DNA of 64,000 nucleotides from Trametes villosa (taxonomy: Eukaryota; Basidiomycota; Agaricomycetes; Polyporales; Polyporaceae). The notes under the pieces were generated by a model. It was given only the letters and a program-made list of their open reading frames with translations. It searched no databases and was not told the origin of the DNA. Shown here in pieces: positions 19,602-61,199 of the stretch; the first letter of the stretch is position 1, and every line of letters begins with the position of its first letter. The stretch is from the NCBI GenBank assembly GCA_002964805.2, contig PUDQ02000102.1, positions 1 to 64,000 on the forward strand, given 5' to 3'. The position numbers and the translations under genes were made by a program.

Positions 19602-21100
19602 TCGGCGCTACTTAGCGCTAGCAGCGGACGCAGACGGGCGCTCGTTTGCATCGTTGTTTTCTTCCACCATCCTCTCTGAGCGCTGAGCTACCGCGCTCGT
19701 CCAGGCTTGTCCAGGCTGCTACACCGCTGTATATCGCTGTGAACCTCTGACTAAGCGAAACATCCCCGCGTACCCCTCGTCTACAGGTTCCATGCGCAAG
19801 GCAGACTTTCGCTCGGATACCAAAGGCTTGCGGAGTTCGAGGCTCGAGAGCAGCAAGCGTGTCACAGCCAATTTTCATGGGGCATCTTACAGGTAGGTTG
19901 CAAAAAATGGTCTGCTCAACCTATGCGGGTCGACAAATTGCAGCCCTGGTTCACTCACTCTGTGTTGTTCGCTATCGGCTATGCTCATCATGCAGCTCAT
20001 GAGTCCGTCACATCTGCGGCAATACTGGATTGGAATCTTGCGGACTCTGGCTCGGGGAGTATCCCGCAAATAGAGTGCTAACATGTTCACTTTTCAGACT
20101 ATAAAGCACACCGTACCGATGCCTACGATCGCACTTTGCAACAGGCTGCTCGGCACCATACGTCAAGCGCAAACCCACCCCTACGTCCGGCATAGGCCAA
20201 ACCGAGTGGCGTCGCACCCAAGACGCGTGGACTGGTGTCGCGAATCCAGCCTTAAAGCTGCCTCGCCGGAGCGCTCACAAGCCCGCCAAACCGTGTCCTA
20301 GCCGAATCTTGTCGCCCAGTACGCGACCGCTTCTCTCTCTCGGCCCCAGCCGCCGCTCTGGGACTTGGACCATTGCCTCAGAGAAGGTTGTGGAGGGGAA
20401 GGTCAAGGGCCTTCGCATGTGCGTTTCGTCCTCCATACCACCACTGCCTCTGTCGTACGGCCTATCCTGACTCCTCGCAGCACCACTCGCACTCAACGCC
20501 CTCTACTCCCCACGCTGTGCGCGGGTATTGCGTTCTGCACCTCGGCAAGTCCGCACGTCCCGGCCACTGAGAGGTCCTCGGCTGCAATACGCGCGTCGCC
20601 ACCTCTTCGCACGCGCAGCGGCTGTGGCGGATTTGGAGCAGCTTGAGTTCAACTCCCTCTGCGCCCACGCGAGCAGCGCAAAGCACTTTCGGACCGCCAT
20701 GGTACGGAACGCGATTGTGCAACAGAAGAACGTCAGTACCGCGCGCGAGGCCGAGGTGTTCCTGGGCGTGAGCAGGTGTTGGCCGCGGTAGGGATCTGGG
20801 GCAGTACTCACCGATGTGCTCGTGTACCGCCGCACTCACGAGCACGTCTCCTCGCTGAGGAGTGCGTAATCACAGTGCCAATCCGCGTCGAAATGCACCC
20901 CCAGTCCAATGCATGCTTATCATGGCAGAAACCGGGAGGTTTGGCGGCGCGACAGCGAGAGAGAGAGAACCCTGGGCGCGCGTCTCCGAGGCTTCCATGT
21001 CATGGAATAGAACTTCTTGCCTAATCAACTCAGTCGCTTCTTCCCGCGTGCCATGAGCTTCGCACGCGCCAGCCGTCGTGCTCCGTATCGATGGGGGCTG

Positions 21101-41100: not shown

Positions 41101-41139
41101 ATGCCGCGATTCCTGAATACCTGGACTGGCGAGTTCGAG
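41101..41139 (+). pseudogene. HET-E, 5' fragment (13 codons)
   Basis: It reads MPRFLNTWTGEFE and is then cut by the transposon end at 41140. The missing next codons (WHSDPKKVRYAILSH) are found at 58581 on the far side of the element. Confidence 0.85.
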
Positions 41140-41156
41140 CATCAGCAAAATCCCGG
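41140..41156 (+). repeat. Left terminal inverted repeat
   Basis: CATCAGCAAAATCCCGG; 16 of 17 bases match the reverse complement of 58562-58578. Confidence 0.85.
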
Positions 41157-41841
41157 ATGTCCTGATCGGGCCTTACGGACTTTGCCAGACCGTTCAGACA
41201 GGTCAGACCGTAAATGCAGGTTCTTGTAGTACTTGACTTAGGGTGTCCTGATTCTCCTGATCTCCTGATCTCCTGATCCAGCAAAGAGAAATTCAGACGT
41301 GATCAGGAGATTCAGAAGCCCTCAGGGCGTTCAGACACGTTAAGTGGAAACATATCGCCCGAACCCGCAGGGCTACAGTGCTTTCAGACGATCAGGTACC
41401 CCAGCCCACCAGACAGACAGGCTCCTTAAGTCGAGTAAGTGAGCTACAGCGATGCAAGGGAGGGCATGTTGTAAGGGAAATAAGTAATGAAATGAGCTCA
41501 GCAGCGGCAATGAAATCATGTCATCAGACAGACAGAGGAATCAGGAAATCGATATATTGCAGGTGTCAATGAAAACAGACGTGAAAGGAGCCGCCAGGGC
41601 GCGCAGACGATACCAGGGCGGACAGAGTGATCAGTCGATGATATACCGTCAGCCTTCGGGTCCCGCATACTGCACTCGACAGCGCCGGAGCAGCAATGCA
41701 TCAATGATTAGAACGTCTCTAGCTGAGCACATTGAGCGACTCACAGTACGGGAAATAGCGAGCACGGCTGCTCGAAGACTAGTGCAGGGGATGGCGGTAG
41801 CGCAGAGCGTGAACGCCGGAGGAGGGGTTGGTGAGGCGCCA
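41157..41841. repeat. Left subterminal repeat region
   Basis: TCAGAC occurs at 41194, 41203, 41293, 41331, 41384 and 41524, and a CTCCTGAT run lies at 41250-41279. No gene seen; this is likely the transposase-binding region. Confidence 0.6.
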
Positions 41842-42186
41842 TTAGATATCAGGCTGTAGGTCTGGTCTAGGCGGCGAGGTGAGCACAGATGAAGAAAACA
41901 TACGAACGACGGGCGCAGATGCTGTTGATATGGTGGACGATGTTGACGAGAGTTGAAGGCGTGCAGATAGCGATGTCGAGAGCGGGGTGATGTCGGCGAT
42001 GTCGACGATGTCGGAAGCAAGAGAGGAAGACGGAGGCATAGGCGAGGCGGTGAAGCGGATATGAACAGTGCGCGTACCCGTTGAGGGTGCCTGCAGAGTA
42101 AACGTCGTGGGTGGTTGAATATCCTCGACGTGTGGCGTAGGGACGAAGGCTAGAAGATCATCGTGAGCGATAGCTGCCGGGGGCAT
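41842..42186 (-). other. Uncertain Ser/Thr/Pro-rich open frame
   Basis: A 114-codon minus frame starts MPPAAIAHDDLLAFVPTP and is rich in Ser, Thr and Pro, with no recognised domain. It lies just downstream of the minus-strand transposon gene and could be a further exon or a separate small frame, or chance. A GTACGT donor and GGACAG acceptor between the two would allow splicing, but the upstream frame already ends in TAG. Confidence 0.25.
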
Positions 42187-42306
42187 AGCGTCATCACCGC
42201 CTACATCGATGGAGAATTCACGAGAGGAGTGTGTCGTACTGTCCGCGTGCGCTGGGTCGAACGTTCAGCAAATGTCACTAGTGTACGCAGCAGAACGTAC
42301 CGATGA

Positions 42307-44690
42307 CTAGTTCTCGGTGAGCTGCGAGTAGTCGAAGTCCAAGATCATCCGCAGCGGGTCTTCAGCGGGAGCTGTCGAGGCGACGGGCACGTCCGACCTT
42401 TCCAACGCGGCTTGGATGATCTGATCGACGCTCTCGATGGCGAGGGTCTTGGCGGAGCTAACGAACTGCAGGGTCCTCGCCTCGTACTTCGTGATGCTGA
42501 ACTCGGTGTCCTTGCTGCTGTCTTTGCCGGTGGCAGGGTTGAAGGTCTTCGCCGCAATAGGGCGCCCCTCTTTGTCATAGCCCACCTTTCCCATTAGCCA
42601 TAGCATGGCTGCACGAAAGGCCTATGAAGTGTTATGATCACGACAGTTTCGAGGCGATGTAGTGGATGTAGTACTCACTGCAGCGGCGGCGAGGCCAATC
42701 GCTCCCCACGGGTACCTACCCGTACGACGGCTGAACAGCCCCGGGACTTCGATGGCACCGTCGATGGCCTCCATATGTACGGACAGTGGCCCAAGAACAA
42801 AGGGCGATTGGTACAGTCCCTGGACATGTGGGTGGACGGTCAGCAGAGATATATACGGGGAGCGTGGGACCTACCGAGTTGTCGTCGCTGTTGGGATCGA
42901 GGTCGGCGAAGAAGATACGCTTGGAGACCAAGATCGTGCGGCAGAACTCGCTGCGGGCTTCATGACTAGCGTACTTCTTAGGGTTCAGGCCAAAGAAGAC
43001 CTCGAACGCGCGGAGGGCACCGTGCCCGAAAGCTCCGCGCCACTCATAGATGCGCTGGTTGACCTAGACAGAATGCGTGTGAGTAAGATAATAGAGCATC
43101 CAAGAACGGTCGATGCTCACCAGGCAGTACACGGGGTCGTTGGTATCCTTGATCGTGTACCCACTATCTTCGCCGTAAACTGCGCACCAGATCCGGCGCA
43201 GGACGGGGACCGTCACTACATCGGACGTCGGCCAAGGGTTGTTGAGGGAGCCCAACCACGCGAAGAGGGTGGGGAGGAACACGTGCTTCCATCTGTTGTT
43301 AGCGACGGCGACCGCCGGCAGGTCCTTGTTCGTAGCCCCGGCAGAGCGCGGGGGCTTCGCCGTTGGTGGGGCATCCGCGGAGTCTTCATCGAGAGCGATC
43401 GCCTACAGGGGCATACGTCAATGCGTTCCGAGTCTGGTTTGAGGGTAGCAGGACTCACAGATGATCGCGATGACCCAGGGATACTCCTGCCACCCTTGGC
43501 CGACTTGTCGTTGCGAGGCACCTTCTTCTCGGTCGTCTTACCAGGCGTTGTGAGGTCGACAATATCGCACTGAACGAGCGCCTGTAAATGTAGTTAGATA
43601 TTCATTGTATAATGTTGCGGAGGTGTGACTTACCGCGCTTGAGAGTCGCGCGCCGTTCTTCGCGGGGCTGTTCTTCGCCGCCTCCGCCTCCTCCGCCTCG
43701 TCATCGGTGCCAACGAAACCGCGCTCGGGCTCGTCGAGAGGCTCGGACTTGACCTTGACGTCCGGCATTGGCTGTACCGTCCTCCCCTTCGGCTCTGCCG
43801 CCTTCCCCTTTGACTCCGCCGCCTTCCCCTTGGGCTTCGTGGCGCCGGAAGGCTTCTGGTTGCCGGTATACGGAGTTGCGGGGATAGCCAGAGTACGAGG
43901 AAAGGCCGTGGAGGAGGAGGAGGAGGGAGCGGTCGCAGTCACCCCCGCAGCCCAGTGCCTGACGCGCGACTGCCCTCTGAAGGGCAGATGTCAGATGGCA
44001 AAAGACGAAAGGCACCGGACAGCGCGCAGTAATCGATGAACTTACTTCGAGGTGGCAGTGTCCGCGCTAAGCGCCGAGTCCGAGTTGGCCGCAGACTCGT
44101 CGACTCTGCCGCGTAAGAACTTCGCCTTCGAGGCCTCGACGCTGGCGCGCAACGAGTCCTTCGCGGTCTTCTTCTTCTTCTTGATAGGCTCGCTCTCCTC
44201 CTCTTCCTCCTCATCGTCCTCCGTAGCGGCGGCCTTAGCCCCATCGGCGTCAGCACCGCGCGACTTACGACTCTTTGGCGCCGGCGTAGGGGCCTCTATT
44301 TCCATGGCGTTGGCGTCCGACTCGTCGTCGGTGCCCTTGGATTTGGCCTTACGCTTACGCTTAGGCTTCATGCAAGCAGCACATTTGCCCTAAGATTCAG
44401 ACACGATCGGTTGAGAAGGTGGGCTGCCGCTTACCTGGGGCTTTTTGGGGCTGTCCTTCTGCTTCGAGTGCTCTTCACGTAATTTCCGGGTAAGCTCCTC
44501 GTTCTCCTTGATCAGGAGCTCGAGCTGAGCTAACTTATCCTCTTTCTCCTTAGTGGCCTGCTCCTCGCGCTGTTTAGCAGCTGCCTTGGACGCGTTATCC
44601 GCTTGGACCTCGCCGGTTTTCCGACGGCGTGGAGGAACGTCGGGGAGGCCGGGGTGGCTATCAGAATTGGACGAGCGAGTGCGCGCCATG
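42307..44690 (-). CDS. Transposon-associated protein with coiled coil and Lys/acidic-rich N-terminus (multi-exon)
   Basis: ATG at 44690 (MARTRSSNSDSHPGLPDVPP) opens exon 1 with a charged coiled coil (DKLAQLELLIKENEELTRKL) ending at a GTAAGC donor near 44434. Further exons on this strand read MKPKRKRKAKSKGTDDESD...DDEEEEEESEP, then a Ser/Lys-rich piece with a KGKAAE repeat (43.8 kb), then VPVLRRIWCAVYGEDSGYTI and DTNDPVYCLV (43.1 kb), IYEWRGAFGHGAL (43.0 kb), LVSKRIFFADLDPNSDDNS (42.9 kb) and a last exon ending DFDYSQLTEN at 42307. From memory, a protein with this WRGAFG...FF...DPN order is a frequent companion of Plavaka-type elements in Agaricomycetes; its function is unknown. Exact exon borders not resolved. 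A TATAAAA box lies on this strand at 44846-44840. Confidence 0.55.
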
Positions 44691-45177
44691 CTGACGCGGG
44701 GAAGGCGATGGGTAAGAAGGGGAGGGGGATAGCAAGAGGGAAAGGGGACGGGGAGGGGGACGGGGACGGGGAGGGGGAGTGTGCCAGCGGGACACGTCGT
44801 GGAGAATCGGAGAGAACATTTGTTTGTCGGGGTTTTGCGTTTTATAGCGGTCCAGTAACAAGCGCGCTGAGCTCCGTTCAAGCAGCGGGGCGTCGCAAGC
44901 GAGCCATCAAGAGCCTAAGGGGATATCCCACGGCCTTACGCCCACCTGCCAGCAGAGCAACCCTCAAACGCAACCATCAACCACCATGACCCTCCCCCGC
45001 AGGTCAAGAACCTCCCCCCTACCGCGCGATATCCATACTTACCCCATCTAACCCGGCAGACACAGCGACGTGCTCCCCCTCATCCGCGTTGAAGGAACAG
45101 TTGGCGGTCGGCGCCCCAGGTATTACATATTTGGTGGGGATTCGACGTCGGCCCAAGCCCCGTTGGCAGCTTCGACG
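44691..45177. other. Divergent intergenic region inside the transposon
   Basis: It separates the minus-strand gene from the plus-strand F-box-like gene. It holds a purine-rich (plus) gacggggaggggg repeat at 44735-44780 and the minus-strand TATA box. The first exon of the F-box-like gene may begin near an ATG at 44986 that runs into a CGCAG|GTCAAG donor-like site. Confidence 0.4.
44840..44846 (-). promoter_or_regulatory. TATA box of the minus-strand transposon gene
   Basis: TATAAAA on the minus strand, about 150 bases before the ATG at 44690. Confidence 0.4.
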
Positions 45178-46685
45178 GCTACATGCCAGGCGACTGCCAG
45201 GTTCCTCAACAGCCCGGACATCCTGTCCGTCGTCTTTCAACACATCGGGCAGGATTACCGCGCCAGGCGCGACCGCAAGATGCTCTTACAGCTTATGCTG
45301 TCGACTAAGGCATTCTTTCATCCTGCGTCGTCCGTCCTCTGGGGCTCCCTCAACGACGTCGGACTGCAGCCGCTCCTCAACATGATTGAGTCATTGTTGG
45401 ACTCCAAAGACGATAGGTATGCTCTTCGCTACGTCCTTGCGAGTCGCTATACCCTACTCACGAGTCGGCGTTAGTACGCTGAACCAGGTCGCGGACACCA
45501 TCTCCTCGTCGGTTGTGTGGAAGAACTTCCTCTATTACGGTAGCCACGTTCGGAGCATCCGAATTGACGGCGGATACTGGCACGGCACCGGAGCCATCCC
45601 CTTCCTGTCCTCTCTTGTTACAGACTGCTCCGCTCTCCTCCCCTGCGTCAAGTACTTGTACTGGAACGCCGCTTCTACGCCCAACGACGATCTCCTATTC
45701 TTCATCACCCCAACCCTCCGTAAACTCGTCCTCGAAATCTGCGACTTCCCGCGAATTTCCATCTCTGCCCGCAGCGAGTTCCTGGAGTGGAACCGACGCC
45801 TTCATGAACGGCTTTCCACACTTGCTCCCCACCTCGCCGATATCACGATCCTCACCACCGACGCGATGGAGCACCCCTACAGCGCTGTACCTGCCGTATA
45901 CTTCCACAAGCTTCACCGGCTCCCGGTCCGCGTTCTCTCAAGCCACGGTAAGTAGGCTCTCTATCGCACCGTGCACGCATGCTGACCGTCAACTACCAGT
46001 GAACTGGGCCTTCGAGCGGCAGCAGAAGATCCCACTGCAGTGCATGGAGCTATGTGCTATCCCGGGGATGGACGGTCTCGACTTATGCCTGGAGGTCCTC
46101 GACATCTATCCGTATGCGTCTCTGCGTTCTCTCCGCCTCTCTTCCTGGGGCTGCGTCTCCCCGGCGTCGCTCAAACTTCTCATCAACATCCGCCCCCTTT
46201 TCCGACTCCAGCTTCTAGAAGACCTTCAGCTTTCCTTCCCTCGGCACGTATTCTCCTTCGACGACAGCCAGCTTCTCGGGATCGGCGAGGCCTTCCCCAA
46301 TCTCGTCAACCTCCGCTTGCAATTCACGGTTGCAGCCAAGTCGGCCATCCCTGACATTCGGACCACTGGCAGCCTCATCAGCATCCGACCGACCCTCCAG
46401 ACGCTCGCGCTGCCTGCTATGCGCGTTGCCGACTCGCCCCACAACCTCATGATCTGCGGCTCGCAAGCCTCGGTGTTCCAGCATCTCATTGTCGGAACAT
46501 TCTACGTTCCGCCGGGCGTCCACAGCTCCGCCATTACCGCAGCTATGCGTGCGGCGTTCCCCCGCTTCCGCCCCGGCGCAGTCTACTATCACTCGTTGTA
46601 TGTCCCCTCGGTATGTGCTGTCTGCCTTCGACGCCGTCGATCCGACTGAGACTGACCTTGTGAAGCGCAGGCGCTCCAGGACTAG
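45178..46685 (+). CDS. F-box-like protein with leucine-rich C-terminus (transposon cargo)
   Basis: Exon 1 (5' end unresolved, no clear ATG in frame) reads ARFLNSPDILSVVFQHIG, then MLLQLMLSTKAFFHPASSVLW, fitting the F-box pattern of basidiomycete proteins (pair of helices, then CKAF-P-L-VLW). An intron near 45417-45473 (GTATGC...GTTAG) leads to an exon with TLNQVADTISSSVVWKNF and repeated Leu-rich strands. A second intron (GTAAGT about 45952 to CCAG about 46000) leads to SLRSLRLSSWGCVSPASLKLL and LLEDLQLSFP, LRR-like repeats. The last intron 46611-46670 (GTATGT...GCGCAG) gives a short end at 46685; unspliced, the frame stops at 46649. F-box proteins recruit substrates to SCF ubiquitin ligases; such genes are greatly expanded in Agaricomycetes. 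Its place inside the element suggests captured or element-owned cargo. Confidence 0.55.
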
Positions 46686-47478
46686 GGGGCGGAATCCGAC
46701 TTGGCTCGATGGGACCCTTCTGCTCATACAGGAGGAGCCTTGATTCCATGTGGCCATGTAGCTGTCAAAAGGGAGACACAGGCTGAAGCGTCTCCGTCGA
46801 TGAACGCCTCGTAGTGTTGATACCGACGACTGTATGTACATAGTTGGCTCAAGTATTCGAATTCCGATTCTCGCATCCTCCGGGTGAGCTTCATGGAGTA
46901 TTCCAAGCCTGCTTGTCCCCGAGTACGTCGTGCCGGAGTCTCCGAGACCGATGGGATCATGAGCACGTCCTGTTCAAGGGGTTGGCATCGATTGGGTAGG
47001 GCCGCTAAGATACTATATGCCGCCGTTTGACAGCGTTCATACAATCAAGTTGTGAGTAGCAGGACGATCAGGGTGAGGCAGTATAGTGTATTTACACCTC
47101 GAATATCTCTTGCAGCGTCGAGGACTCGAGCTGCGAGGGGGATGGGCGGTATCGGAGGAATAGCACTCCGCCAAAACTTGGGGCTCCGCATTAGACGCCC
47201 GCTGCCGACAATAACAACTTTTTTGTGACTTGCTTTCGAACCTCCACAGCGTTGGAGTGCGCCCGCACCAACGCACAAACCCAAAGCAAGAACATCCCGG
47301 CGCGCACCCTGCAATGCACGCAACCCATCCTGGTGGGTTCCCCTTTACTTCTAGCCCCCAGTTCCTGCTTGGATACGGCGATCCGACCCTGGAACACGGT
47401 CTCAGGCTGCTCTGGGGGCTTTCACTACACTCCAGGACGACTACTGACGCCCCAAAATCCAAGGGAACTCCTCCTCTG
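46686..47478. other. Spacer before the TET/JBP gene
   Basis: No recognised gene. The frame of the first TET/JBP exon is open from 47230, but that upstream part shows no family similarity, so the coding start may lie further in. Confidence 0.4.
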
Positions 47479-49505
47479 ATGGATTGGTCTTCCGCAAAGT
47501 GCGTGATAGCTCGTGTCGGACCAGCGGTCGCGCCCCCTGATCCTTGTCTGGGCCAGACTCGCGGCGGGAAGCAATTCTCGCCGTGGTCTTGCATTCAGGC
47601 GCCGGAAGAGATGAGGCTATCGAGCCTCTTCGACCAGGCCGCAGCCCGTGCCGTCCGAGAGATGGAGCAGGATGTCGAGAACGACGACCGCGGCATCTTG
47701 TTAGATGGCGCCGAGCCACACAGCGGGGCCGTTTACCCCGCCACTCCTTCAGGCCCTGACGCTTCGAACCACAAGGCGGGTGGCTCCTCCGATGACGTGC
47801 GCGCAAACACGGCTCCGGAAGTACGGAAGGTGGCTGTTTCTTAATATGTAGCATGTACGCAGAGAGTTGAGCGCAGCTGTAGAGGACGGCGGCTTCTGCT
47901 GAGGCGGACAGTCCTTCCACAAACGGACGTACGCCGAGTGTTTGTCGCGCCGAAAACATCGCTATATCTTGCGCGCTGGACTCTGCGCCGGGCGATGTCC
48001 GGGGTGTGGTTGGTACGCTGCCAGACGAGGGACAAGAGGTGGACCGCCCGTCCAAAAAGTTCAAAGGTGCGTACTACTTTCAGCAGATCATCCGGCCGCT
48101 TTGACATCCATGTACACTTTATCGTAGCTTCCCATGACGATACTACGGAGCCGCCGCATGGAGGCCGCACACCTTCGCGCGGGACCTCCCAAGCTGTTGA
48201 AGAGCTGCGGAACAAGTCCCGGTCTAGGAAAAGGCGCAACGCCGTACGCGACGCCGCCCGGGGTGCGACTGGGCTGAAACAGGTCGCCATCAAGCACCGG
48301 GAGCGTGCGAGGCCTGCACAAGTCTTCGACATGTATGGGAGGGACGACGCGCCTCCGAAGCCTAATGAATTCCTCCTGCAGTCTCTCCCAACGTCTTCCA
48401 CGGGATTTGTCGGTCTTCGCCAGACGCAGAGCGCGTCCGACCGCGCACCTTTAAGTAAGGCTGAAGCACTTGAGAGAGGCTTCCGCTACGTGGAATGGGA
48501 TGGGGTGTGAGTGTTTTGCATATCATGATGCGCTAGACTTATTCCTCGGCAGCTCAACCGTGCCACTTCTCGACGCAAGCGGCCGTGTATTCTCCGTGCT
48601 TGTCGGTCGCCCGCATGGAGACGACTGGGACGCCACCATGGAGGCCGTCCAGGAGGCGCTTGAAGATGCTCGTAATGAGCTGCGCGACCCGGCGCGGCAG
48701 GAGGACGAGCACCGGCGAGGCCGCTTCACTACGCTGGCAAGCGGTATCTCCTACGGAGGCGGGCAAACGGTGATTCCCTGCCCCGACTGGCGTGGGGTGA
48801 CTCTTGCTGATCATGCTCGCCTACAGGAAGTACGCACTTTGACCTACGATACGCAGCTAGAAGAGCGCGTCGCTCGTAAGCTTCGGACAAACACCGCAAT
48901 TCAACAGGTTGCTGGGTTCGGGGATGGTACGGCCGCCCTTCGCATGTTGTCACCGCACGTCCTGATATCGACTAACCGCAGCCTCATTCCGCACTTATGC
49001 GCCGCGGCTGCATGAATATTATCAGGAGACGATGAAGGCGCTGTTCACAAAGCATACACACCTCAAGCCGAACTTCCCCAACTCAGTCTTCGGCAGTATG
49101 ACGTATAACCTCGGCCCGCGAACTGTAACATACGCACACACCGACGCGCAGAATCTTCCTGCTGGATGGTGCTCAATCACCGCGGTAGGCGACTACGACC
49201 CGACCGCCGGAGGGCATATCGTGTTGTGGGACGCGCGCATGGTCATCGAGTTCCCGCCACGTGCTACCATCCTCATCGCCTCAGCCCTCCTCCGCCATTC
49301 AAATACCACAGTTCGGCCCCACGAGCGGCGCTATTCGCTCACGCAATACTCCGCAGGCGGCTTGTTTCGATGGGTGGAGTGCGGGTTTATGTCGCAGAAG
49401 GAGTTTCTGGCTGGCGGAGGTGAGTATCAGATGACTGGGAGGGAGCGTTGGCTGCGCGGCGTAGAGCTATTCAGCATGTGGTCCGAGCTTTGCCCCGAGC
49501 CCTAA
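47479..49505 (+). CDS. TET/JBP-family 2-oxoglutarate/Fe(II) dioxygenase
   Basis: Exons ...47829, 47883-48066, 48128-48506, 48553-48926 and 48982-49505 join in phases 0, 1, 2 and 1 with no stops. Possible starts are ATG 47479 (MDWSSAKCV) or 47611 (MRLSSLFDQ, 559 residues). The N-terminal half has basic patches (KSRSRKRRNAVRD) as in fungal relatives. The family signature WDG-STVPLLDASGRVFSVL, then GRPHGDDW and TTLASGISYGGGQ, precedes the catalytic core. The core has HTD (in YAHTDAQNLPAGWCSITAVG) as Fe-binding H-x-D, GGHIVLWD, EFPPRATILIASALLRHSN with the distal His, and ERRYSLTQYSAGG with the Arg for 2-oxoglutarate. Fungal TET/JBP enzymes oxidise 5-methylcytosine in DNA; many sit in DNA transposons. 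All key residues are present, so it is probably active. Next gene downstream, same strand, is the transposase. Confidence 0.85.
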
Positions 49506-49886
49506 ACGTAGCTTCCTCTCCGTGTTTTGTCCCCCCGGTCGCTGAATGACATCGGACGTATACACCTTCATATGCCCCCGTGATTATGTCGACTGACCTA
49601 CAGGACCTGCTGGTATATTCGCTTATACTCCGCCGTCATCCCTGCAATTGCCCGAGGATACCTCACGCGCCGTCGTCTTCGAATGTAGGTGAATTCATTC
49701 CGCACACATCGGATATTCATCGTTGATATCTGTCTCCTCATACCCTGTATCTGGGCGTCAGCGTTGCATATAAAATCAACAGTACTTCACCGGTTTACGA
49801 CAGAATCCCTCAGCACCCCTCTACACCCCTGACCACTGCGACGCCTCATCCGTGAACGTACACCGCTGGCGACCCCCGCCGCCATC
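49506..49886 (+). promoter_or_regulatory. Promoter region of the transposase gene
   Basis: TATAAAA at 49769-49775, about 118 bases before the ATG at 49887. The rest is the TET/JBP 3' flank; no other gene seen. Confidence 0.5.
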
Positions 49887-52800
49887 ATGTTTCCATGCGC
49901 TGTCACAGGATGTCGCTTTGTCGCTAAGAGCCGCTCCGGCTATACCCAGCACTTGAAATGGGCCCACCCTGACTGGAATCCTGACATTCCCGCGCTCCTC
50001 CCTATCGACTACGACTCGGACTCGGACGATGAAGAAGGCGGAATTGATAGTGCCGTCCCGCGTCCGAATGATATGTATGTTTCTCTGCGGCAGTGCAACA
50101 TACACTTGTAGCTAACATCGACCGGCCAGGATTGCACATAGCACTTCGCAGAGCGAAGCGGCATCTGAGCATGGCTCGGCTGGAGGCAATTCCGCAGTGA
50201 ACGAGCAGCCCGCTGCTCTTCCGGGTGAGTGTCGCCCTCAAGCTTCGCATACCTCTTTTGTGCTCAAGTGAATAACCAAGCTGTGTTGTCGCACTCGACT
50301 ACGCCCGTCTCGTCGGAGCACGGCGAGGCGGTACCTAATGTCGATGAAGATCAACAGGTAGCGTATGAAGGTACGCGTGTCTACAGCAATCGCGGCCAAT
50401 TGCTAAGCAAAATTAGGTTCTGCAAACGATTACATTCCGCCATGCTCAAGCAGCGACGAGGAGAGCGCGTACGGCGACGAGCCAGGCTCCGGGAGAGGTG
50501 AGATCTAGAGACTCGTCGCATAAAATCCTGACCGTGGCTATAGGTTCTCCCCCGTTCTCCCTGCATGTGGATTTTGAGTTGCCCGAGCTCGAGCTCGAGC
50601 TCGAGGAGGAGGATGTGTACCTGGCAGATCCCCCACAATGTAAGCGCGCCACACCGCACGTCGTACAAACCTAACATGCTCATGGCGCAGCTTCTCGTGG
50701 CGCGTCGCCAGCTTCGAGTGCTAGCGTAGAGGGCTCCCCTGCACAGTCCATACACGGACCTACGGGAGGCGTCCAAGGGGAGGTGCCGGAGGCCGCAAGC
50801 ACGTGCACGTATCACCCGGTGATCAACGGTATGTTTGGGTAGCAGTTTCTGCAGACTGAAGTACTCAGTTCAACATCTGCTCTAGGGAGACCAGTTGGCG
50901 AGGACGGAGATCCTCTCGATCCTGGGGCCGGCCCAGCGCCCTTGCCACAACGCAGCACGGACGACTGGTCCCCGTACAAGGATCGCGTCGCGTTCGAACT
51001 CGCGGACCTCTTATACTCAAGGGAGCAAATGTCTGCGGGGAATATCAATATGCTCCTTCAACTCTGGACGGCCGACGCCGAACGCCGTGGAGGCTCTCCC
51101 CCCTTCCGTACTCAACCGGAGCTTTACAGCACCATTGACAACACCCCGCATGGCGGCGTGAAATGGGAGAGTTTTTCCGTCTCGTACGGCGGTACACGCC
51201 CCGACGGCGACGTGCCCGCCTGGATGACTGACAAGCACGCGGTATTCTTCCGAGATCCGCGCAAGATCATTCACGGCATGCTCTCGAGTCCGGACTTCAA
51301 GGAGGAGATAGACTACGCGCCGCTACGGGTGCATGGACCTGATGGAAAGCGCCGCCTCCAGAATTTCATGAGCGGAGAATGGGCGTGGAGGCAGGCGGTA
51401 TGTGTCTCTGTTCTCAGCTAGGAAGCGTTTATAGACTTACTGATGTATCCTAGAACATCCTCTCGCAGAGAGACACCTGCGTGAACGCGTCGTTCGTTCC
51501 CGTTATCCTCGGCAGTGACAAGACAACGGTCTCCGTCGCTACCGGGCAAAACGAGTACTATCCCCTTTACTGTTCCATCGGGAACGTCCACAACAACGTT
51601 CGACGCGCACATCGCAACGCCGTTGAAGTGATCGCGTTCTTGGCGATCCCGAAGAGTGCGTCCCTTCTCCCATGCTCGCAGCTATGGGACCTCATTCTCG
51701 TTCAGCCGACAAGCAGCACGCAAACGACGCTGAATTCCGCAAGTTTCGCCGTCAGTTGTTTCACAGCTCCCTTACACGCATTCTGAGCTCTCTGCGGCCG
51801 TGGATGGAGGATCCGGAGATCGTACGCTGTGGGGACGGGCATTTTCGCAAGGTTGTCTACGGAATCGGTCCGTACATTGCGGATTATCCAGAACAGGCCC
51901 TCCTTGCATGCATTGTGCAGGGATGGTGTCCTATGTAAGTCACGTTCCATCGGCTCTGCATTACAAGGAGTCTGAATACCTCCATATAGCTGCACTAGTC
52001 CCAAGGACGATCTCGATAGTAGCAATCGCATATTGAGAACGCGCGAGCACACCGAGCTTCTCGTACAGGAATTCGAGCTCGGCGACCTCTGGGATAGCTA
52101 CGGAATAGTAGGCGACGTCATCGTATGTATCTGACGCAGTGCTGTATACCCATAACGCATGGATTGACTGGTCCTCCTCAGCCCTTCACGAACTATTTTC
52201 CTCGTGCCGATATTCACCATCTGCTCGCCCCTGATATTCTCCATCAACTCATCAAAGGCACCTTCAAAGATCACTTGGTGACCTGGGTCGAGCAATATCT
52301 GAAGCAAGAGCATGGAGAAACGAAAGCGTCGGAGATTTTATCCGAAATAGACCGGCGGTGAGTGATGTCTGCAATATGCCATGTTCGAGTGCTGACGTCT
52401 CTCTTGTGGGGATGGCTAGCATTGCAGCTGTACCACCGTTCTCAAAACTGCGCCGCTTCCACGAGGGGAGGGGTTTCAAGCAGTGGACGGGTGACGACTC
52501 CAAAGCTCTGATGAAGGTATGATGCCGTTCGCTTTATGGTGCATTGACACTATAGCCAGCCGCTCATGGGACTGCAAACAGGTCTATCTTCCGGCAATCG
52601 ACGGATTACTTCCGACAGAGATTGTCCGTTCGATCCGCGCATTTTTGGAGTTCTGCTACCTCGTGCGGCGCGACGTACACACCGAGGAGAGCATCGCGAA
52701 GGTTGAGGACGCACTTTCCTCGTTTCACACGCACCGTGAGGTATTTAGGACATGGGAGGTCCGCAAAGACTTCCTGCTTCCACGCCAACACTCGCTCGTC

Positions 52801-53930
52801 CACTACGTTGATAGAATCTGGGAATTCGCAGCGCCGAACGGCCTTTGCTCCTCGATAACGGAGTCGAAGCATATAAAGGCCGTCAAGGAGCCCTGGAGAC
52901 GTTCGAATCGCTTCGAAGCACTCGAGCAAATGCTCATGACCAACCAACGCATGGGGAAACTCGCCGCGGCACGCATCGACTTCAAGGAGCGCGGAATGCT
53001 TGAAGAGGGCCTGCACACCACGGAGGGCTTCGGTACGTTGTCACCGTCTAATATTCACCAGTCGCGCTGACAGTGTTGCGTTCGAACAGGAAGGGATGTG
53101 GGCAACAGTTCGGCCGTGAATGCGACGAACGCAGATGCCGACGAGGAAGGCGATGTCGAGGGGCCCCGGGTCATGTCATACATGGCAATGGCTGCAACTC
53201 CACGTGCGTATTCAAGAGCATACGTCTATACCGCGTCTTGTTTATACATCATATAGAACATCAGTACGGAAGGACCACCGACGAAATCGCACGACGGTTC
53301 GGAATCCCTCCCCTCGAGGAGCTCATACGCCGCTTCCTATACCACCAGCTACACCCGGACGCCAGCCTCAGCGGAGCATCCGTACAGCTTGACCTCTGCC
53401 CTGTGCTTGAGGGAAGGCTCTCCGTCTATCACTCCGCCGCAGCGACCTTCTATGCGCCGAGCGACCCCTGCGGTACGGGTGGTATGCACCGCGAGATTAT
53501 TCGTGCAACGCCTCAATGGCGTAGAGGCCCCGCGAGGTTCGACTGCGTCTTTGTCAACAAGAACAACGACGCCCCCGGCCTCCTCGGCATGAACGTCGGA
53601 AGGGTTCGCCTATTCCTGCGTATCCAGCATCAGCAAGTTCACTACCCCTGCGCTGTCGTACATTGGTTCCATACTCTCGGCGACGCGCCCGACGAGGACA
53701 CGGGTATGTGGAATGTGGAGCCGAGGTTTGTCGGGACGCCTCGTAACCGTTCCCCGGTACTCTCGATCATTCATCTGGATACGATTGTTCGCGCTGCTCA
53801 TCTCATTGGTGTTAGCTTAGACAGGGACACACCTCTCGGGCTGCAGAGTCATAGCGCGCTTGATACCTTCTCCACATTCTATGTGAATAAGTACATCGAC
53901 CACCACGCATTTGAACTTCTACATACATAG
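49887..53930 (+). CDS. Plavaka-type transposase (C2H2 finger plus DDE-like core)
   Basis: Start MFPCAVTGCRF with a C2H2 finger (C-x4-C...H-x4-H, about residues 4-26), then acidic linker exons (DYDSDSDDEEGG; LPELELELEEEDVY). The core reads DDWSPYKDRVAFELADLLY, MSGEWAWRQ, then FVPVILGSDKTTVSVATGQN, SIGNVHNNVRRAHRNAV, FRKFRRQLFHSSL, GIGPYIADYPEQALLACIVQ with a WCPIC zinc-binding start, FPRADIHHLLAPDILHQLIK, RGFKQWTGDDSKALMK, FLEFCYLVRRDVHTEES, APNGLCSSITESKHIKAVKEP and a C-terminal domain to the stop at 53928-53930. These are the ordered blocks I know from Agaricomycete Plavaka transposases. Likely catalytic acids are the Asp of GSDKT, the Asp of LAPDILHQ and the Glu of ITESKH (inference). Checked junctions include 51397|51454 and 51655|51709. 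No stop or frameshift seen in the core; probably functional. Confidence 0.85.
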
Positions 53931-56300
53931 CTATCTCGGAGACTCTTCTAGTACTCTCCTCTGTCGCTACTTTCCCAGCCTCCCTTCACAATCTACTACC
54001 ATTGCCGACTTCTTAATCTGTGTATTCGCCTGCTGATCGAACTTCCCCGTGCCGTGCCGTAGATCACTGCATTGTGGATTCTAACTTGTCATGTCGTATC
54101 TCGCTGGAGAGACGGTCGCCGCACTGCAATATCTGTGTGAGTGTATTCTTTTCGCATCTGCTGCTCCAGCGGTGATGTTATCCTAGACCTGCCGCCTGGT
54201 CCAAGTAGAAGGCGAGGCGAGAGCGTCGGCAGACACAGGGGAGGAGGAAGAGAAGGAAGTGGCCTGATAGGCAGACCTGTAGTAGTCGACTAGAGACAAT
54301 CTAGACAAAGCAAGAAGCAGCGCGTGGGCTGAGCGAGACGGCGATAGAAGGCGAAGTCCAGAGCGGTGGGGGGCGAGTGGCGAATAGTGCGAGACGAAGG
54401 CGAGGTGGGTGAGCAATCGCGTCGAGCGTGAGACTTGGGATGCGAAGTCGAATGGTGCTCGAGAGGGGTGACACGAAGCCGGGATTCGGCAGTTCACGAT
54501 ACAATAGTACTGGGCCATAGACACACAGGGGCAGGTGCATATTGAGGCCTAGATTAATTCAGTCGTAAGCAACATATACGAATACAAGATAATGAGTAGG
54601 GGAGGAATCGAGAGAGTTACCAGTGCAGCGACTCGATCCGGTGTTGGCGCTAAGCGCTAAGTACGCGCTTTTCGCCGACGTGCTCGAGTGTGTCTGCGCG
54701 CTTGTGTGGCTCTCTCTCCTACCCTCACCTCACTTCGCTGACCCTCGTAAGCTAGCTACGCTTATTTTCTTGTCTCGCCCCACAAGGAGATCCGGATACA
54801 AGCAGCCCGCGGGACTGTATGCATGCTCACAGCCCACGCGCTACACGTGGCACTCCGGGCCAACCGCGAGGGACCTGACGAAGGCGGCACCACCCACACA
54901 CGGTGCGTTTCTCCAAGATACCCTTCGCGCGTGTCTCCCTGCACACCGCAAGTAAATCCCGCCGGATTAGTCCCGCGAGGCCGTGAAGAAGTGGGTGGTG
55001 TATCATATCGGTACGTGTTTCTCTCCTTCTGCAGCGCACTGGTACGTATTGGATACGTCGGTACCCTTCCAATCTGCCCTTCAGACTGCAGAATCTTGGG
55101 ATGATGTCTCTGGGCTTCTGGTCTGGTATTGTACTCTACTCAAGGCTCGGCTAGCTCTCTGACTGCGGTTTAAGGCTTCTTGGAGCTCCTTCGGTACCTG
55201 CTGTCCTCGAGAGGCTGATACATCTATGCAGCGTCTTTTCGGATGCAATACCCGGGCCACGAGTGAATTCATACAGCCTGGGACGTTACTTTGGCTGTCT
55301 TAGGCTCGCTGGTACGTGCATGCATAATAGCTACATGTCGTCCTCACTGTCCAGCGTTCAAGCTGACACAAGCCCTAGTTGTGTGAAGTACCCCGGCATT
55401 CCCCATCTTCGGTGAGTGACGAGGGCGCCCTGCCTTTCCACTGCGTGCTCCCTGTTGATGCACCGTACCGAAGTCCCATAAGGTAAGGCCTTCGCGAAAG
55501 TCCCACAAGCGAGCTTTGAACATCAAGAATCAGACGCCGCCTGAAACTCCTGTCGCGATCGTTGGTTTGACCCGCATAAAGTTTTGCAGCCACCTTCCCC
55601 TGTATCTCCGCTCAATGGACTTATCTATCGAGAAGAGCACTCGTCTCCAACCCCCGGTCGCTATCAGGACCATCCCTGCGGCCTCGACGCTCATGCGAAG
55701 CCACACTTCCATGCAGCCATCCTCGGCACATTCACTAAGTCTACTCATCACGCCTGCTCACCGACGCACCTCCTACACCGCCTTACCCGCCCCTGGCCTC
55801 CCTGTATAACCGCCAGAAACGCGCGTTACCCGATTGAGAAGAGGTCGCTCATGAGAACATGTCACACGGTGGCGCCCGACACATCGCTGCGCTTTCGTCG
55901 CCACCGCTCTAAGTATTAGATTGAAACCTGGGGAACTATCCCGTCAATGGCCGGAGGTACGGAGTCGGCTCGGAGGACGGAGGCGTGCTTGCGCCTCCGC
56001 CTTCGCCGGTACGTGATGACTTATTCTGTCCCTGTTGCTGCAGCTCACAGCCCTGTTCTTTCTACCTTTCTCTATCGCTCCTGCATCTAGCTGTGGCTGA
56101 TGTGGTCCTAGAGTCCGAGCACTTGGACACCATAATGCCTTTGGACGATGACGACGACAACGACGACACTCCGGTCCCGTCGTCTCCCCGCCGACGAACC
56201 CTGAACGACCTTCACGACGCGACACCTCCACGGAGACCTATGCCCAACACCCGCCCCGCACTCGTCCCACAGCGGCCTGTTCACCCTCCCGGATTTCGAC
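53931..56300. other. Non-coding part of the transposon
   Basis: 2.4 kb with several short overlapping frames and none recognisable. A plus frame beginning MPLDDDDDNDDTPVPSSPRR at 56135 runs just ahead of the captured gene fragment in another frame and may be part of its 5' region. Otherwise nothing is seen. Confidence 0.4.
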
Positions 56301-56980
56301 ATGGAAGACCCCTGCGAAGTGCCAAGTTCCCCTCATTCGCCGCATCCCGCGCTGCCCGAGCTCGAGCTCGAGGACGAGGAGATGGAGCCGTCCGCGGCGG
56401 AGTCGCACGCTCCGCCGATGGACACCATTTCTCCGTTCCTCCTCGGAGGCGCGCCACCCCCCGAACGCAAAGGCCTGGGGCTCTTTCTCCAGAGTTACTC
56501 TGTCGACTCGCCTCTCGCGCGCTCGCCGTCGCCCACCGACGATGACATGCAATTCCTCGACATCCAGCTCGATCCGACGTCAACCGACCTCGCCGTCGAC
56601 GAGTTTCTCGCGCTCCGAGCGCTGCGCAAACACGCGCTCCACCAGGAGCGCACCGCGCGCCTCGCCGAGTCGGAGCTCAACGAGCGCGTCACCGCCGCCG
56701 CGAGCGCGCTACCGCCGCCGCGAGCGCGCTGCTCCCGCCGCTCGAAGGCACCGGCTCCGGCTCCGGAGGCACGCTGCCCACGGAGCTCGACCTCGCGGAG
56801 AAGCGCGCGCGGAAGCGCGAGCTGCAAGCGGCGATGGACATGCGCGCGGAGGCGCGGCGCGTGCGCAAGCAGCAGAAGCAGCGCGCGAAGGAGCTCGGCG
56901 CGCTGCTCGACCTCAAGATGCAGACGCCCGTCTCGCCGATCGAGGGCTTCCCGCCGTTCGCTAGCGGGGGCAAGGGGTAG
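56301..56980 (+). pseudogene. Broken gene fragment (possible host-gene capture) with a 20-bp frameshifting duplication
   Basis: The frame from ATG 56301 reads MEDPCEVPSSPHSPHPALPE, KGLGLFLQSYSVDSPLARSP and DFLALRAL-like text (DEFLALRALRKHALHQERTA, ESELNERVTAAASAL). It then becomes Arg/Ser nonsense. At 56691-56710 the 20-mer ACCGCCGCCGCGAGCGCGCT is repeated exactly at 56711-56730. Discounting one copy restores a coding-like frame (TELDLAEKRARKRELQAAMD, EARRVRKQQKQRAKELGALL) that ends at TAG 56978-56980. It resembles, from memory, the N-terminal part of a conserved uncharacterised basidiomycete protein. It is therefore most likely a captured and disabled gene fragment. Confidence 0.55.
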
Positions 56981-57069
56981 ACGCGGAGCATTGCACACTT
57001 CATCGCGTACATGGTGCTCCGGAGACATGATAGGAGGCGCCCACGCCCGAATCTGCAGCCAATGCCCAA

Positions 57070-57290
57070 CACACTCCCCGCCGATGGACGCCATCTCTCC
57101 GGACCCGTCCAGAGGCACGCCGCTGCTTGAAACAGACCCGCTGCTCGTAACAGACCACAGCATGCAATTCCGCGACATTCAACCCGATCCGCCGTCGATC
57201 GACCTCGACCTCGCCGTCGCCAAGTCCACATCTCTCGCGCGCCATGCGCTCCGCTCGCACATTCATCGAGAGCGCGCTCGGCGAAGTCAC
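57070..57290 (+). pseudogene. Second, partial degenerate copy of the captured fragment
   Basis: SPPMDAISPDPSRGTP, MQFRDIQPDPPSIDLDLAV and RHALRSHIHRERAR repeat, in the same order, APPMDTISPFLLGGAP, MQFLDIQLDPTSTDLAV and LRKHALHQERTAR of the first copy. It lacks the start and the later part and carries many substitutions. Confidence 0.5.
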
Positions 57291-57446
57291 AGCACAGCGC
57301 GAGTGGAGCTTCGGGTGTCTGCTTCACGCATCGCGACGCGCGCAGGAAGATATCGCCGCCCTTCGCTCTCGATGCGGCCGTCGTCGCTGCGGTGGCTCGC
57401 GACCCCCGCACGCATATGTGGACGTCACCGAAGCATTAGGACCTGA

Positions 57447-58356
57447 CGATGACCCGAGGACGAGTCGATGGTGATCGGGGTGCCGATCGTGACAGGGCCA
57501 ACGACGCGCACGTTGTGGTCCCCAAACCGTAGCGGTTTCGAAGGTGATGCGGAGCTCGAGGGGCGGCTCAGAGCTCGAGCGCAGATTCAATGGGTCTGGG
57601 GTCGAGGGCGGTGCACGGACGTTTCGAGCGTTGTCGACGGGCTGTGGTGCATGGAAGAGGGAGCAGGCCTATTTCTGTGCCGGCGACTGGAGGTGCCGAT
57701 CATACCCGAGCGGACGTTGTGTTCGCCGTGGTTCTCGTATCGCAGCGGGCTCGGGAGCCGGCACAGAGCTTGCAGGCAACGTCTATGACGTCCCCACAGT
57801 GTCCGGCGTGTCCGACGCGGCAGACAGGAGGAAAGTCGTTGACGGGCTTGCGCTGGCCGCCTGAGCCATCAGGCTCTTTCATGAATGCACGCCGGGAGTG
57901 GTATGGACTTCGGGGCGGCATGAATGGGTCCTGGGTGGGGGTACTGTAAACAAAAACGGCGGTGCGCCGGTGTTCGCCTACGTGAACCCGGCTGTGGAGG
58001 GCATGTGCAAGGGCACCGGCGGCGACAGAACGTAGGTGGGGTACTAGGGCCCGGGGCTTTTGAAGTCGCGGCGTACTCTCTGCTCGGATCCCTCAAGAAT
58101 GGTAGGTGCTGGCTGGGTTAACGTTGAGCTACCATTCAAGGTAAATGCACAGCACACGATCAACCAGCACTGGTCCGAGTATGCGTCCTCACAGGCCTCA
58201 CAGATGACCTTGCTCGCGATCATGGACGCTGAGATCGGCAGACGGCCACCTCGCCCTCAGCGCGATGCAAGAGATATATTGTCGATGCCAGACTCGGCCT
58301 CGGTAAAGGGGTGCACAGCTGTCTGTAGTTGGAGTGTTTCCTGCGCCCTATGATCG
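57447..58356. other. Right part of the transposon, no gene seen
   Basis: GC-rich sequence with open frames on several strands and no recognisable protein. Confidence 0.4.
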
Positions 58357-58525
58357 GTCTGATAGCGACTGCGCGGTCCTGGCAGGCCTGAGAGGCCTTG
58401 ATGGCCTGGACAATTGGCGTGACTTGCGATCTGGCGTGTCTGAATCCGTCTGAGCGGTCTGATACAGGAGAACTGGAGCCTGCATTGCGGTCTGAGAGGT
58501 CCTGATCAGGACTTTCGGCGTCTGA
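58357..58525. repeat. Right subterminal repeat region
   Basis: GTCTGA occurs at 58357, 58438, 58448, 58457, 58490 and 58520, the reverse complement of the TCAGAC hexamer at the left end. CCTGATCAGG is at 58501. Confidence 0.65.
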
Positions 58526-58561
58526 TCGCCTTAGCGCCCTGGCAAAGCCAGCGCAGACGGA

Positions 58562-58578
58562 CCGGGGTTTTGCTGATG
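58562..58578 (-). repeat. Right terminal inverted repeat
   Basis: Read inward, CATCAGCAAAACCCCGG, one mismatch to the left end. The last G (58578) may belong either to the element or to a GAG target duplication. Confidence 0.85.
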
Positions 58579-61199
58579 AGTGGCATAGCGACCCGAAGAA
58601 GGTCCGATACGCCATCCTGTCCCACGTGTGGCGGACTCCCGAGGAGGGCGGCGAGCAGACGTTCGACGACGTCCGGCAGATCCAGGCAATTGTGAAGGCA
58701 GCGCAGAAGCAACCTTCTGGATTTTGCACCGTTGATTGGTCCCAACTCCCCAGCTACCCCCGCACCTCTCCCCTAGGCACCTACTGTTGGTTATTCCCCA
58801 GCAGAGTCAGCGTCATATTCTCTAACGGATCGCCACTCTCGGACAAGATCAAGGGCCTCTGCAAGGTCGCGCGCAATGCCGGCTTCGATCTCGTCTGGAA
58901 TGACACGTGCTGCATCGACAAGTCGAGCAGTGCGGAACTCTCGGAGGCGATCAACTCGATGTACGAGTGGTACCGCCTCTCGGATATGTGCTACGTCTAC
59001 CTAGCCGACGTTCCCGACGGCGATATTGCACAACACGATATGGTTTCCCGCTTCCGGAAGAGCCGATGGCATCTACGCGGGTGGACGCTACAGGAGCTCA
59101 TCGCACCGGAGCGCATCGAGTTTCTGACATGGACCTGGAGATTCCTGGGGACGAAACTGGGGCTCGCTGTGAGCCTAGCCGGGATCACCGGGATTGACGT
59201 CAATATTCTTCTCGGCCGGGCTCCCGTGGATTCCGCCAGCGTCGCACAAAGGATGTCGTGGGCTGCGGAACGACAGACGACCCGCGTTGAAGATCAGGCA
59301 TACTGCCTGATGGGCCTCTTCGGTGTCCACATGTCCCCCATCTACGGCGAGGGGACGAACGCGTTTCTCCGCCTCCAAGAGGAAGTCATCAGGACCATCG
59401 CCGACCAAAGCATATTCTCCTGGCATCCCACATCATCCACCTACGGTGATGAGACATACATCGATTACTGCCTGCTGGCAACTTCTCCGCATTCATTCCG
59501 CTATTCCACAGTCAGACCAATAACCCCCTCCGAATTTGCGTCGAGACTGAACCTGCGAGGGCCCGAGGAGGTTCCGCCCCTGGACTGCAGCTTCGCGCCT
59601 CAAGGTGCCCGTCTTCGTCTCCTATGTGTAAATCTGACGGGGGTAGAAGAACACATCCCGAGCTTACAGCACTTGCATAGCCTGCGGTGCGCGCTCAGCC
59701 CAAGTCTCCGTCGCGGGGCGAACAAACTCGCCCTGCTGCAGTGCGAGGATGAGAATGGACGTCTTGTCGGACTTCCTTTTCATTCTTCCGACGTTGCAGG
59801 GGGCGGATTTGGCTCCATCGTCGGTGACCGTTGCGACTGGGCTGCACTCACGTCGCTCCGCACCGTATGGCTGTCGCGAACGACGCTCGCGAGGATTTTG
59901 GGACACGTCAAGCCGGAGAAGGCCGAGGTCTCCCTGCTCCGCCACCACTCGGATCCCCCTCCATCGAAGTTACTCCTTCCGATTGCCTCGCTGCCTGCGC
60001 TCCGTCTGTGGCCTGGTGATCGTGGTGATGGGCCCATCTTTTCCCTCTCCCCAGACAGCGTCGCGCGCCTACGCCCGCTCGGCTTCACGGTCTCCCCTCT
60101 ACAGGTCACGCGTGGGCGACACGGGTACACTTTGGGTACCACCCTCGCATGTCGTGACGGCGAACTCCTGCATTCCACCTGGTTGCGTCTATCTCTTAGC
60201 AGACGACCGAATTCCCGATTCCCCGAGTCGGGGAATCGGGAATTCCGTCGTCTAACGGTCAGCCTTCACTCCTATAGCTTTACCACCATTCCCTCAAGTT
60301 CCTCAACCAGTCCCACCGCCATTCCCGGTACAACGACAGACTTGAAAGTGCCAGGCAGCTATATTGAGCAGGAATCAAGCGATGGGGACCTCGAGCTTCT
60401 CTACACAATTTCCCGATTCGACCTTCTCATCCGCCCAGATCCTTGGCAGCGGCCACAGCAGGCTCGACTACTACGACTCTCCCTCGAACGCGCTCCAAGG
60501 GGCCGCCAACCTTCTGCACCTAACAGCTCGTGTGTCGTCTTCCTCGTCATGGATATGAGTGAGGAGCACAAACACGTTGTCAAGTCCAGGTGTGTCCTGA
60601 CCATCTTACGCGATACGACAAATAAAGTTAACAGCGCCTCCAAACAATGCAGCACTCCGGACCTCAGTGGCGACTCGGCAAAGTCGCCGTCCCCCGTTCA
60701 CATCCCAGATGTCCGGTCCCATGCCCCGGACACCACAAAGAAGAGGCCGGTGGCGCTAGACGAGAGGGTGGATGCCTTGGGGCAGGAGAACAGCGCGCTC
60801 CGCGCGCAGGTGGCCACCGCGACCTCGCAATACGCGGAAACGAACCCCGAGGTCGCTGCCCTTGCCGGCCAGAACGCCACGCTTGCCATCCAGAGCACAG
60901 CAATTACCAGCCAAAATGCCGCGCTTGCCAGCCAGAACACCATGCTGGTGTCACAGATGGCTGCGATGTCGCAGAGACTCGACGCCCTCGCCGCGGCCGC
61001 GGGTAAGTCATCCACTGTCTCCATTCCATTCACGTTCTCTCACTGACTCTGCATCGGTATTATATCACACGCAGCGACTAACTTCCCTCTCCCCGCCCGC
61101 GCGGACGCTACACCTGATCATGTTATAGCCTGCAGGTTTGCTAGCGACCTATTCGGAGCAATCTTTTGGCGTCTCTTGATTTGGCTATGTATGCATTGA
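58579..61199 (+). pseudogene. HET-E, 3' part separated from its start by the transposon
   Basis: The frame resumes WHSDPKKVRYAILSHVWRTP at 58581 and carries the complete HET domain: NDTCCIDKSSSAELSEAIN, RGWTLQELIAPERIEF, RMSWAAERQTTRVEDQAYCL, GLFGVHMSPIYGEG. The middle region (PPLDCSFAPQGARLRLLCVN) and a coiled coil (ERVDALGQENSALRAQVATA and on to QMAAMSQRLDALAA) follow. A terminal intron 61003-61074 (GTAAGT...ACGCAG) joins in phase 1 to an exon ending at 61199 (hydrophobic AIFWRLLIWLCMH end); unspliced, the frame ends at 61046. No other break, so the gene was probably intact when hit. Closest in layout to HET-B. A 53-base near-perfect palindrome sits in the coding part at 60201-60253. No own promoter visible other than transposon sequence. 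Confidence 0.82.

What the first reader, a model, noticed from the sequence alone, without database searches (positions are those of the whole stretch)
41140..58578. Apparently intact 17.4 kb Plavaka-type transposon splitting a HET gene
Seen: 17-bp inverted ends with one mismatch, oppositely oriented hexamer arrays, an AG/GAG flank repeat, and HET-E sequence on both sides that joins in frame when the element and one GAG are ignored (862 codons, no stop). The disrupted gene is otherwise undamaged, pointing to a recent insertion. An excisable switch of an incompatibility gene is a possible consequence (inference).
Basis: partly seen in the sequence, partly recalled or inferred. Interest (0 to 1): 0.9.

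Follow-up and report, generated by a model that had tools for sequence, protein, structure and literature searches.

The report
Methylation-eraser transposon inside fungal HET gene
A 17-kilobase jumping gene sits right after the thirteenth predicted codon of a fungal HET gene (a family tied to self-recognition in other fungi); it likely landed there recently, and besides a predicted transposase it carries three predicted companion genes, one of them a likely eraser of DNA methylation that would help it dodge silencing.

Summary
Confirmed and reclassified. Window 41140-58578 is a 17,439-bp DNA transposon: 17-bp inverted ends (one mismatch), AG target duplication, inward TCAGAC arrays at both ends. 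It splits a HET-domain gene after codon 13. Eleven of 11 HET paralogues examined run through the same point uninterrupted. The transposase is a predicted complete 1,066-aa Plavaka protein; ends and duplication match the published PlavakaB definition. The same four genes in the same order occur at 9 Plavaka loci of this genome, and three other delimited elements share the end type and 2-bp duplications. So this is a TET+ PlavakaB-type element, a kind printed in December 2025 for two Agaricales, here in a Trametes-like genome with a four-gene core. Its right 4 kb holds pieces resembling other genome places, a cyclin gene among them. "Recent" is likely (834 codons without a stop), not proven: no orthologous empty allele was found. 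The "excisable incompatibility switch" has no support, and "HET-E" is a misnomer (no NACHT or WD40 found).

The parts
41140..58578 (.). whole element, 17,439 bp, TET+ PlavakaB-type DNA transposon
   Evidence: inverted ends, AG duplication, paralogous empty sites
41138..41139 (.). target duplication AG, left
58579..58580 (.). target duplication AG, right
41140..41156 (+). left terminal inverted repeat
58562..58578 (-). right terminal inverted repeat
41140..41539 (+). left subterminal stretch with six TCAGAC, inward
58179..58578 (-). right subterminal stretch with six TCAGAC, inward
41842..44689 (-). predicted DUF6532-like gene, 9 exons, 777 aa
   Evidence: PF20149, 22.5 bits against a cut-off of 24, E 1.2e-4; recurs at other loci
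45061..46685 (+). predicted F-box/LRR-like gene (start uncertain)
   Evidence: one distant homologue with PF12937; recurs at other loci
47479..49505 (+). predicted TET/JBP-like dioxygenase gene, 7 exons, 538 aa (5' part uncertain)
   Evidence: fold of a homologue
49887..53930 (+). predicted Plavaka transposase, 15 exons, 1,066 aa
54169..54503 (.). segment 82-83% identical to C2:33804-34129 and C19:219359-219689
55649..57066 (+). piece resembling a gene: 56026-57066 is 87% identical to C89:191432-192437, inside a 760-aa open frame there; 55649-56021 is 73% identical
57274..58235 (.). stretches 72-75% identical to C1:6690555-6691352, over the 3' part of a cyclin gene
41101..41139 (+). 5' piece of the split HET frame (13 codons)
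58581..61046 (+). 3' piece of the split HET frame (821 codons, PF06985)

Best explanation
A 17,439-bp DNA transposon of the PlavakaB type, with 17-bp inverted ends and an AG target duplication, splits the frame of a HET-domain gene after its thirteenth predicted codon, where its predicted DDE transposase likely inserted it by cut-and-paste, and its predicted TET/JBP-like enzyme would help it escape methylation silencing. Shown: ends, duplication, split frame, uninterrupted paralogues, a Plavaka domain over the full profile, and the same four-gene order at 9 Plavaka loci of the genome. Predicted: the exon structures; the catalytic motifs (GSDKT, ADYPEQ, CPIC, HSLVH, ITES) read from those models; the TET fold, modelled on a homologue. 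Inferred: that the transposase binds the inverted ends and the inward TCAGAC arrays; that the dioxygenase oxidises 5-methylcytosine on the element; that the F-box-like and DUF6532-like proteins serve the transposon; that the HET gene is inactive, since reading from its ATG stops 29 residues into the element and the 3' frame has no ATG before 58959, inside the HET region.
Against: No orthologous empty allele: best other place for the right flank is 81% identical, best-scoring protein 44% over 81%. The ends were found once in the assembly (a 71-bp stretch at 75% aside), and the long matches to other transposase genes are 67-71% identical in DNA, so no recent burst is seen. At up to 3 mismatches the end pattern is mostly noise (476 matches, 272 for the reversed control); only the 13 places with at most 1 mismatch, two of them this element, carry weight. 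The TET region scores below Pfam's cut-off (15.9-17.6 against 34.9 bits), the whole-genome PF12851 search found nothing, the profile found no dioxygenase among PDB sequences, and the TM-scores of the fold matches are modest (about 0.4 by query length); the assignment rests on homologues, motifs and fold. DUF6532 is just under its cut-off. The C126 transposase model lacks C..C, though its DNA reads CPVC there. A 2-bp duplication agrees by chance in 1 of 16. The dS values are near or past saturation. Gene models come from a small home-made predictor trained on five frames.
Confidence: 0.88

Rival explanations
1. Immobile relic: the element inserted once, lost mobility, and its open frames are chance survivors; nothing is active now.
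For: Single copy at DNA level; no empty allele seen.
Against: All four gene models are open; dN below dS against the C126 element; HET frame open over 834 codons, which under neutral decay caps divergence since insertion at about 3.6% (stops only) or 0.9% (with indels assumed at 0.1 per substitution).
Confidence: 0.15
2. Excisable switch: the transposon leaves and re-enters, turning the incompatibility gene on and off.
For: The two halves of the frame join cleanly when element and one AG are left out.
Against: No second allele found; clean joining is what any fresh insertion shows; excision that leaves the AG would shift the frame; at least 17 other HET copies lie on the same contig (hand count), so one copy may matter little; no incompatibility role is known to me for this gene. 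In Marasmius oreades a Plavaka-related deletion did not look like an excision (PMC9674265, passages).
Confidence: 0.02
3. Assembly join: two HET gene pieces were put around a transposon by misassembly.
For: The region is an array of similar HET genes, where assemblers err; no reads were at hand.
Against: Both breaks fall exactly on inverted ends with a duplicated AG, and the two flanks fit one reading frame and one paralogue without a gap.
Confidence: 0.03
4. The transposon targets HET genes or HET arrays.
For: This insertion lies in a HET array of at least 18 copies (hand count).
Against: The flanks in hand of C71, C126 and the right end of C1 (1-1.5 kb each) gave no match to five HET proteins (loci L020, L023, L024, L026, L032); the left flank of C1 was not tested. 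The duplications AG, GA, CA, TG share no motif.
Confidence: 0.05

Closest known systems
TET+ PlavakaB DNA transposons (Kojima 2025, PMC12730594; abstract, passages and sections 18 and 26 read)
   Same: CATCA..TGATG ends, 2-bp duplication, Plavaka transposase with C(2)C and H(3)H, TET/JBP gene inside; the paper's PE-type TETs are likewise recognised by structure rather than by plain sequence search
   Different: Printed for Agaricus bisporus and Gymnopus confluens, with only TET+ Kyakuja in Polyporales; here a Trametes-like genome with 14 TET-Plavaka loci, and F-box-like and DUF6532-like genes in fixed order; 'F-box' and 'DUF6532' occur 0 times in the paper's main text (its supplement was not readable here)
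Plavaka-TET gene neighbourhoods (Iyer et al. 2014; not held, known only through Kojima's text)
   Same: Plavaka and TET/JBP genes found associated, Trametes versicolor and Fomitopsis pinicola included
   Different: As Kojima tells it, an implied association; here delimited elements with ends and duplications
CACTA/EnSpm transposons
   Same: CA..TG ends, short duplication, subterminal motif arrays pointing inward (arrays recalled as typical of CACTA)
   Different: Transposase matches Plavaka, duplication 2 bp not 3 bp, ends CATCAG
Pack-type elements carrying host gene pieces (recalled)
   Same: Right 4 kb resembles a 760-aa frame on C89 and a cyclin gene on C1
   Different: The element also has its own transposase gene; the direction of copying was not tested

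Membership tests
PlavakaB | Plavaka transposase domain (PF18759) | tested here: met
   positions 1-325 of 325, 2.6e-126
PlavakaB | termini CATCA..TGATG | tested here: met
   CATCAG..CTGATG; definition from PMC12730594
PlavakaB | 2- or 3-bp target duplication | tested here: met
   AG, fixed by the paralogues
PlavakaB | C(2)C and H(3-4)H between second D and last E | tested here: met
   CPIC at 517, HSLVH at 724, ITES at 746 of the predicted protein; CPIC depends on the acceptor chosen at 51989
PlavakaB | groups with PlavakaB in a transposase tree | not tested
   no tree built
TET/JBP dioxygenase | HxD...H and arginine of the Fe/2OG core | tested here: met
   HTD at 417, H at 470, R at 481 region of the predicted window protein; near-invariant in alignment A1
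TET/JBP dioxygenase | Tet_JBP profile PF12851 above cut-off | tested here: not met
   17.6 and 15.9 bits against 34.9; 1 of 39 homologues carries PF12851; hence called TET/JBP-like
TET/JBP dioxygenase | TET fold | tested here: met
PE-type TET/JBP (Kojima) | groups with PE-type in a tree | not tested
   reference sequences not available here
F-box protein | F-box profile match | tested here: inconclusive
   no Pfam match of its own, nor of the C71 counterpart; single homologue P0160 has PF12937
DUF6532 protein | PF20149 above cut-off | tested here: inconclusive
   22.5 bits against 24, E 1.2e-4
HET-E (Podospora STAND protein, recalled as HET-NACHT-WD40) | NACHT and WD40 after the HET domain | tested here: not met
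   only HET found in 821 aa at E 0.001

The most novel reading that the evidence does not exclude
The four conserved genes form an anti-silencing kit: the TET-like enzyme strips methyl marks from the element while the F-box-like protein steers a host silencing factor to the ubiquitin system and the DUF6532-like protein acts with the transposase on the ends. Elements with this kit have held their gene order across deep divergence and gather host gene pieces at the transposase side.
Probability: 0.2. Interest if true: 0.75.

Novelty: new variant of a known kind. Interest (0 to 1): 0.55.

Why it matters
It gives a delimited, apparently complete TET+ Plavaka-type transposon with 11 paralogous empty sites, in a Trametes-like genome. 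That would make two open points testable in one fungus: whether transposon-borne TET enzymes protect their own element from cytosine methylation, and what the two companion genes, kept in fixed order at nine loci, do for transposition. The HET disruption itself looks like ordinary insertional damage in a large HET array.

Tried and rejected
Searched for an orthologous empty site in the assembly and among proteins (best 120 of 7,992 listed): none close enough. Searched for further copies by terminal DNA: none; relatives are found by end pattern, by protein, or as diverged DNA. Viral contigs for the TET piece: nothing. PF12851 across the genome: nothing, and the tool warns that this does not show absence; a protein search then gave 92 matches, grouped by hand into 33 TET-like places. 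PDB by sequence profile: 12 sequences at E 0.0024 to 0.97 (capsid proteins, TBP and others), no dioxygenase; judged chance. Considered the F-box-like gene as cargo; rejected after it recurred in order at 9 loci. Looked for telomere repeats in the window, which starts at base 1 of its contig: no tandem TTAGGG. Papers: on HET genes and transposons (listings only), Plavaka with gene capture or cargo (listing), Kyakuja or Plavaka (listing), DUF6532 with transposon (listing; PMC8955403 passages: both domains stand in one list), Marasmius Plavaka (PMC9674265 and PMC8290104, passages). I saw no report of this four-gene architecture in those; Kojima's supplement and Iyer 2014 (not held, listing) were not seen.

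Full report
Observation. The coordinates given are exact. The element runs from 41140 to 58578 (17,439 bp), with CATCAGCAAAATCCCGG at the left and CATCAGCAAAACCCCGG on the other strand at the right, and AG on both sides. TCAGAC points inward six times in the outer 400 bp of each end and never outward.

Target. The flanks belong to a HET-domain gene (PF06985). In the paralogue at 21017 the homology to the left flank ends, and that to the right flank begins, at the same place, 21334-21337. All 11 paralogues examined, four in the window and seven in loci L046-L052, run through this site. Without the element and one AG, 834 codons are open. Entering from the 5' side, translation ends 29 residues into the element; from the 3' side the first ATG is at 58959. 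By my count, whose list is a lower bound, at least 18 related HET genes, the target included, lie on this contig between about 14.7 and 183.8 kb. In one search the 11 named proteins among the first 20 listed are all from Trametes species, so the host is likely a Trametes-like polypore; its name was not given and no match was close enough to name it.

Relatives in the genome. The Plavaka profile gave 144 matches, which I grouped by hand into 64 places. TET-like genes lie within 5 kb upstream on the same strand at 14 loci, and all four genes stand in the same order and orientation at 9 of the 64 (C99, C126, C1, C60, C127, C129, C113, C17, C3); the script's own count of 16 for TET includes a second Plavaka fragment each on C45 and C12. 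On C71 the F-box-like gene is found only by a weak tblastn match. At C24, C92 and C48 the order is Plavaka then TET, against the rule, and on C88 the strands differ. Of 33 TET places, 18 lie within 25 kb of a listed Plavaka place; the other 15 were not followed. Of 16 DUF6532-like places 12, and of 15 F-box-like places 9, lie near Plavaka. Four elements are delimited: this one (AG), C71 23,076 bp (GA), C126 25,890 bp (CA), C1 25,304 bp (TG). The left end on C1 is the best of ten CATCA sites in 8 kb, 13 of 17 bases, and is the only one of the ten preceded by TG.

Age and state. CpG ratios in element and flanks are equal, 1.10. The open HET frame allows at most about 3.6% neutral divergence since insertion if only stops count, or 0.9% if indels arise at an assumed 0.1 per substitution; this presumes that the gene was intact before and is unselected since. 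No near-identical copy was found, so the age rests on this alone.

Known kinds. Kojima (PMC12730594; abstract, passages and sections 18 and 26 read; [quoted passage not shown] The window element meets the structural definition; no tree was built. Its F-box-like and DUF6532-like genes are not mentioned in that main text, but the supplement was not readable here. I therefore call it a new variant of a known kind.

Mechanism. Cut-and-paste by a DDE transposase acting on both ends, with a dioxygenase that would counter methylation, follows Kojima's discussion of such elements, where the function is called not experimentally validated; it is inference here. The HET gene is likely dead at this copy. 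A reversible switch would need precise excision and has no evidence.

Noticed in passing
window contig C99, about 14.7-183.8 kb: At least 18 related HET-domain genes on one stretch of about 170 kb, on both strands, a large HET array (hand count).
   Followed up: partly
C71, about 22.5-26.4 kb (L054): A further element with a gag-like frame (by eye) lies inside the Plavaka transposase gene of the C71 element.
   Followed up: no
C126:22636-30218 (L055, L056): A 2,212-aa multi-exon prediction lies inside the C126 element between TET-like and F-box-like genes; likely a nested element.
   Followed up: no
C126:38118: The C126 element abuts CATCAGCAAAACAGC, which looks like the end of another PlavakaB-like element, so it may have landed in that end.
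   Followed up: no
L014-L017, L019, L021, L022: A second set of ends, CATCAGCAAAA[GC]CCCGA, with a different subterminal sequence and several near other Plavaka matches, points to a second PlavakaB-like family.
   Followed up: no
C24:317-327 kb, C92:46-54 kb, C48:43-54 kb: Plavaka and TET-like genes 8-10 kb apart in the opposite order, perhaps a second TET+ architecture.
   Followed up: no
C13:160-172 kb: TET-like, two F-box-like and one DUF6532-like gene without a listed Plavaka match, perhaps a degraded or non-Plavaka carrier.
   Followed up: no
window 56546-56601 and 57161-57216: Short 82% internal repeat at the piece that resembles the C89 gene.
   Followed up: no
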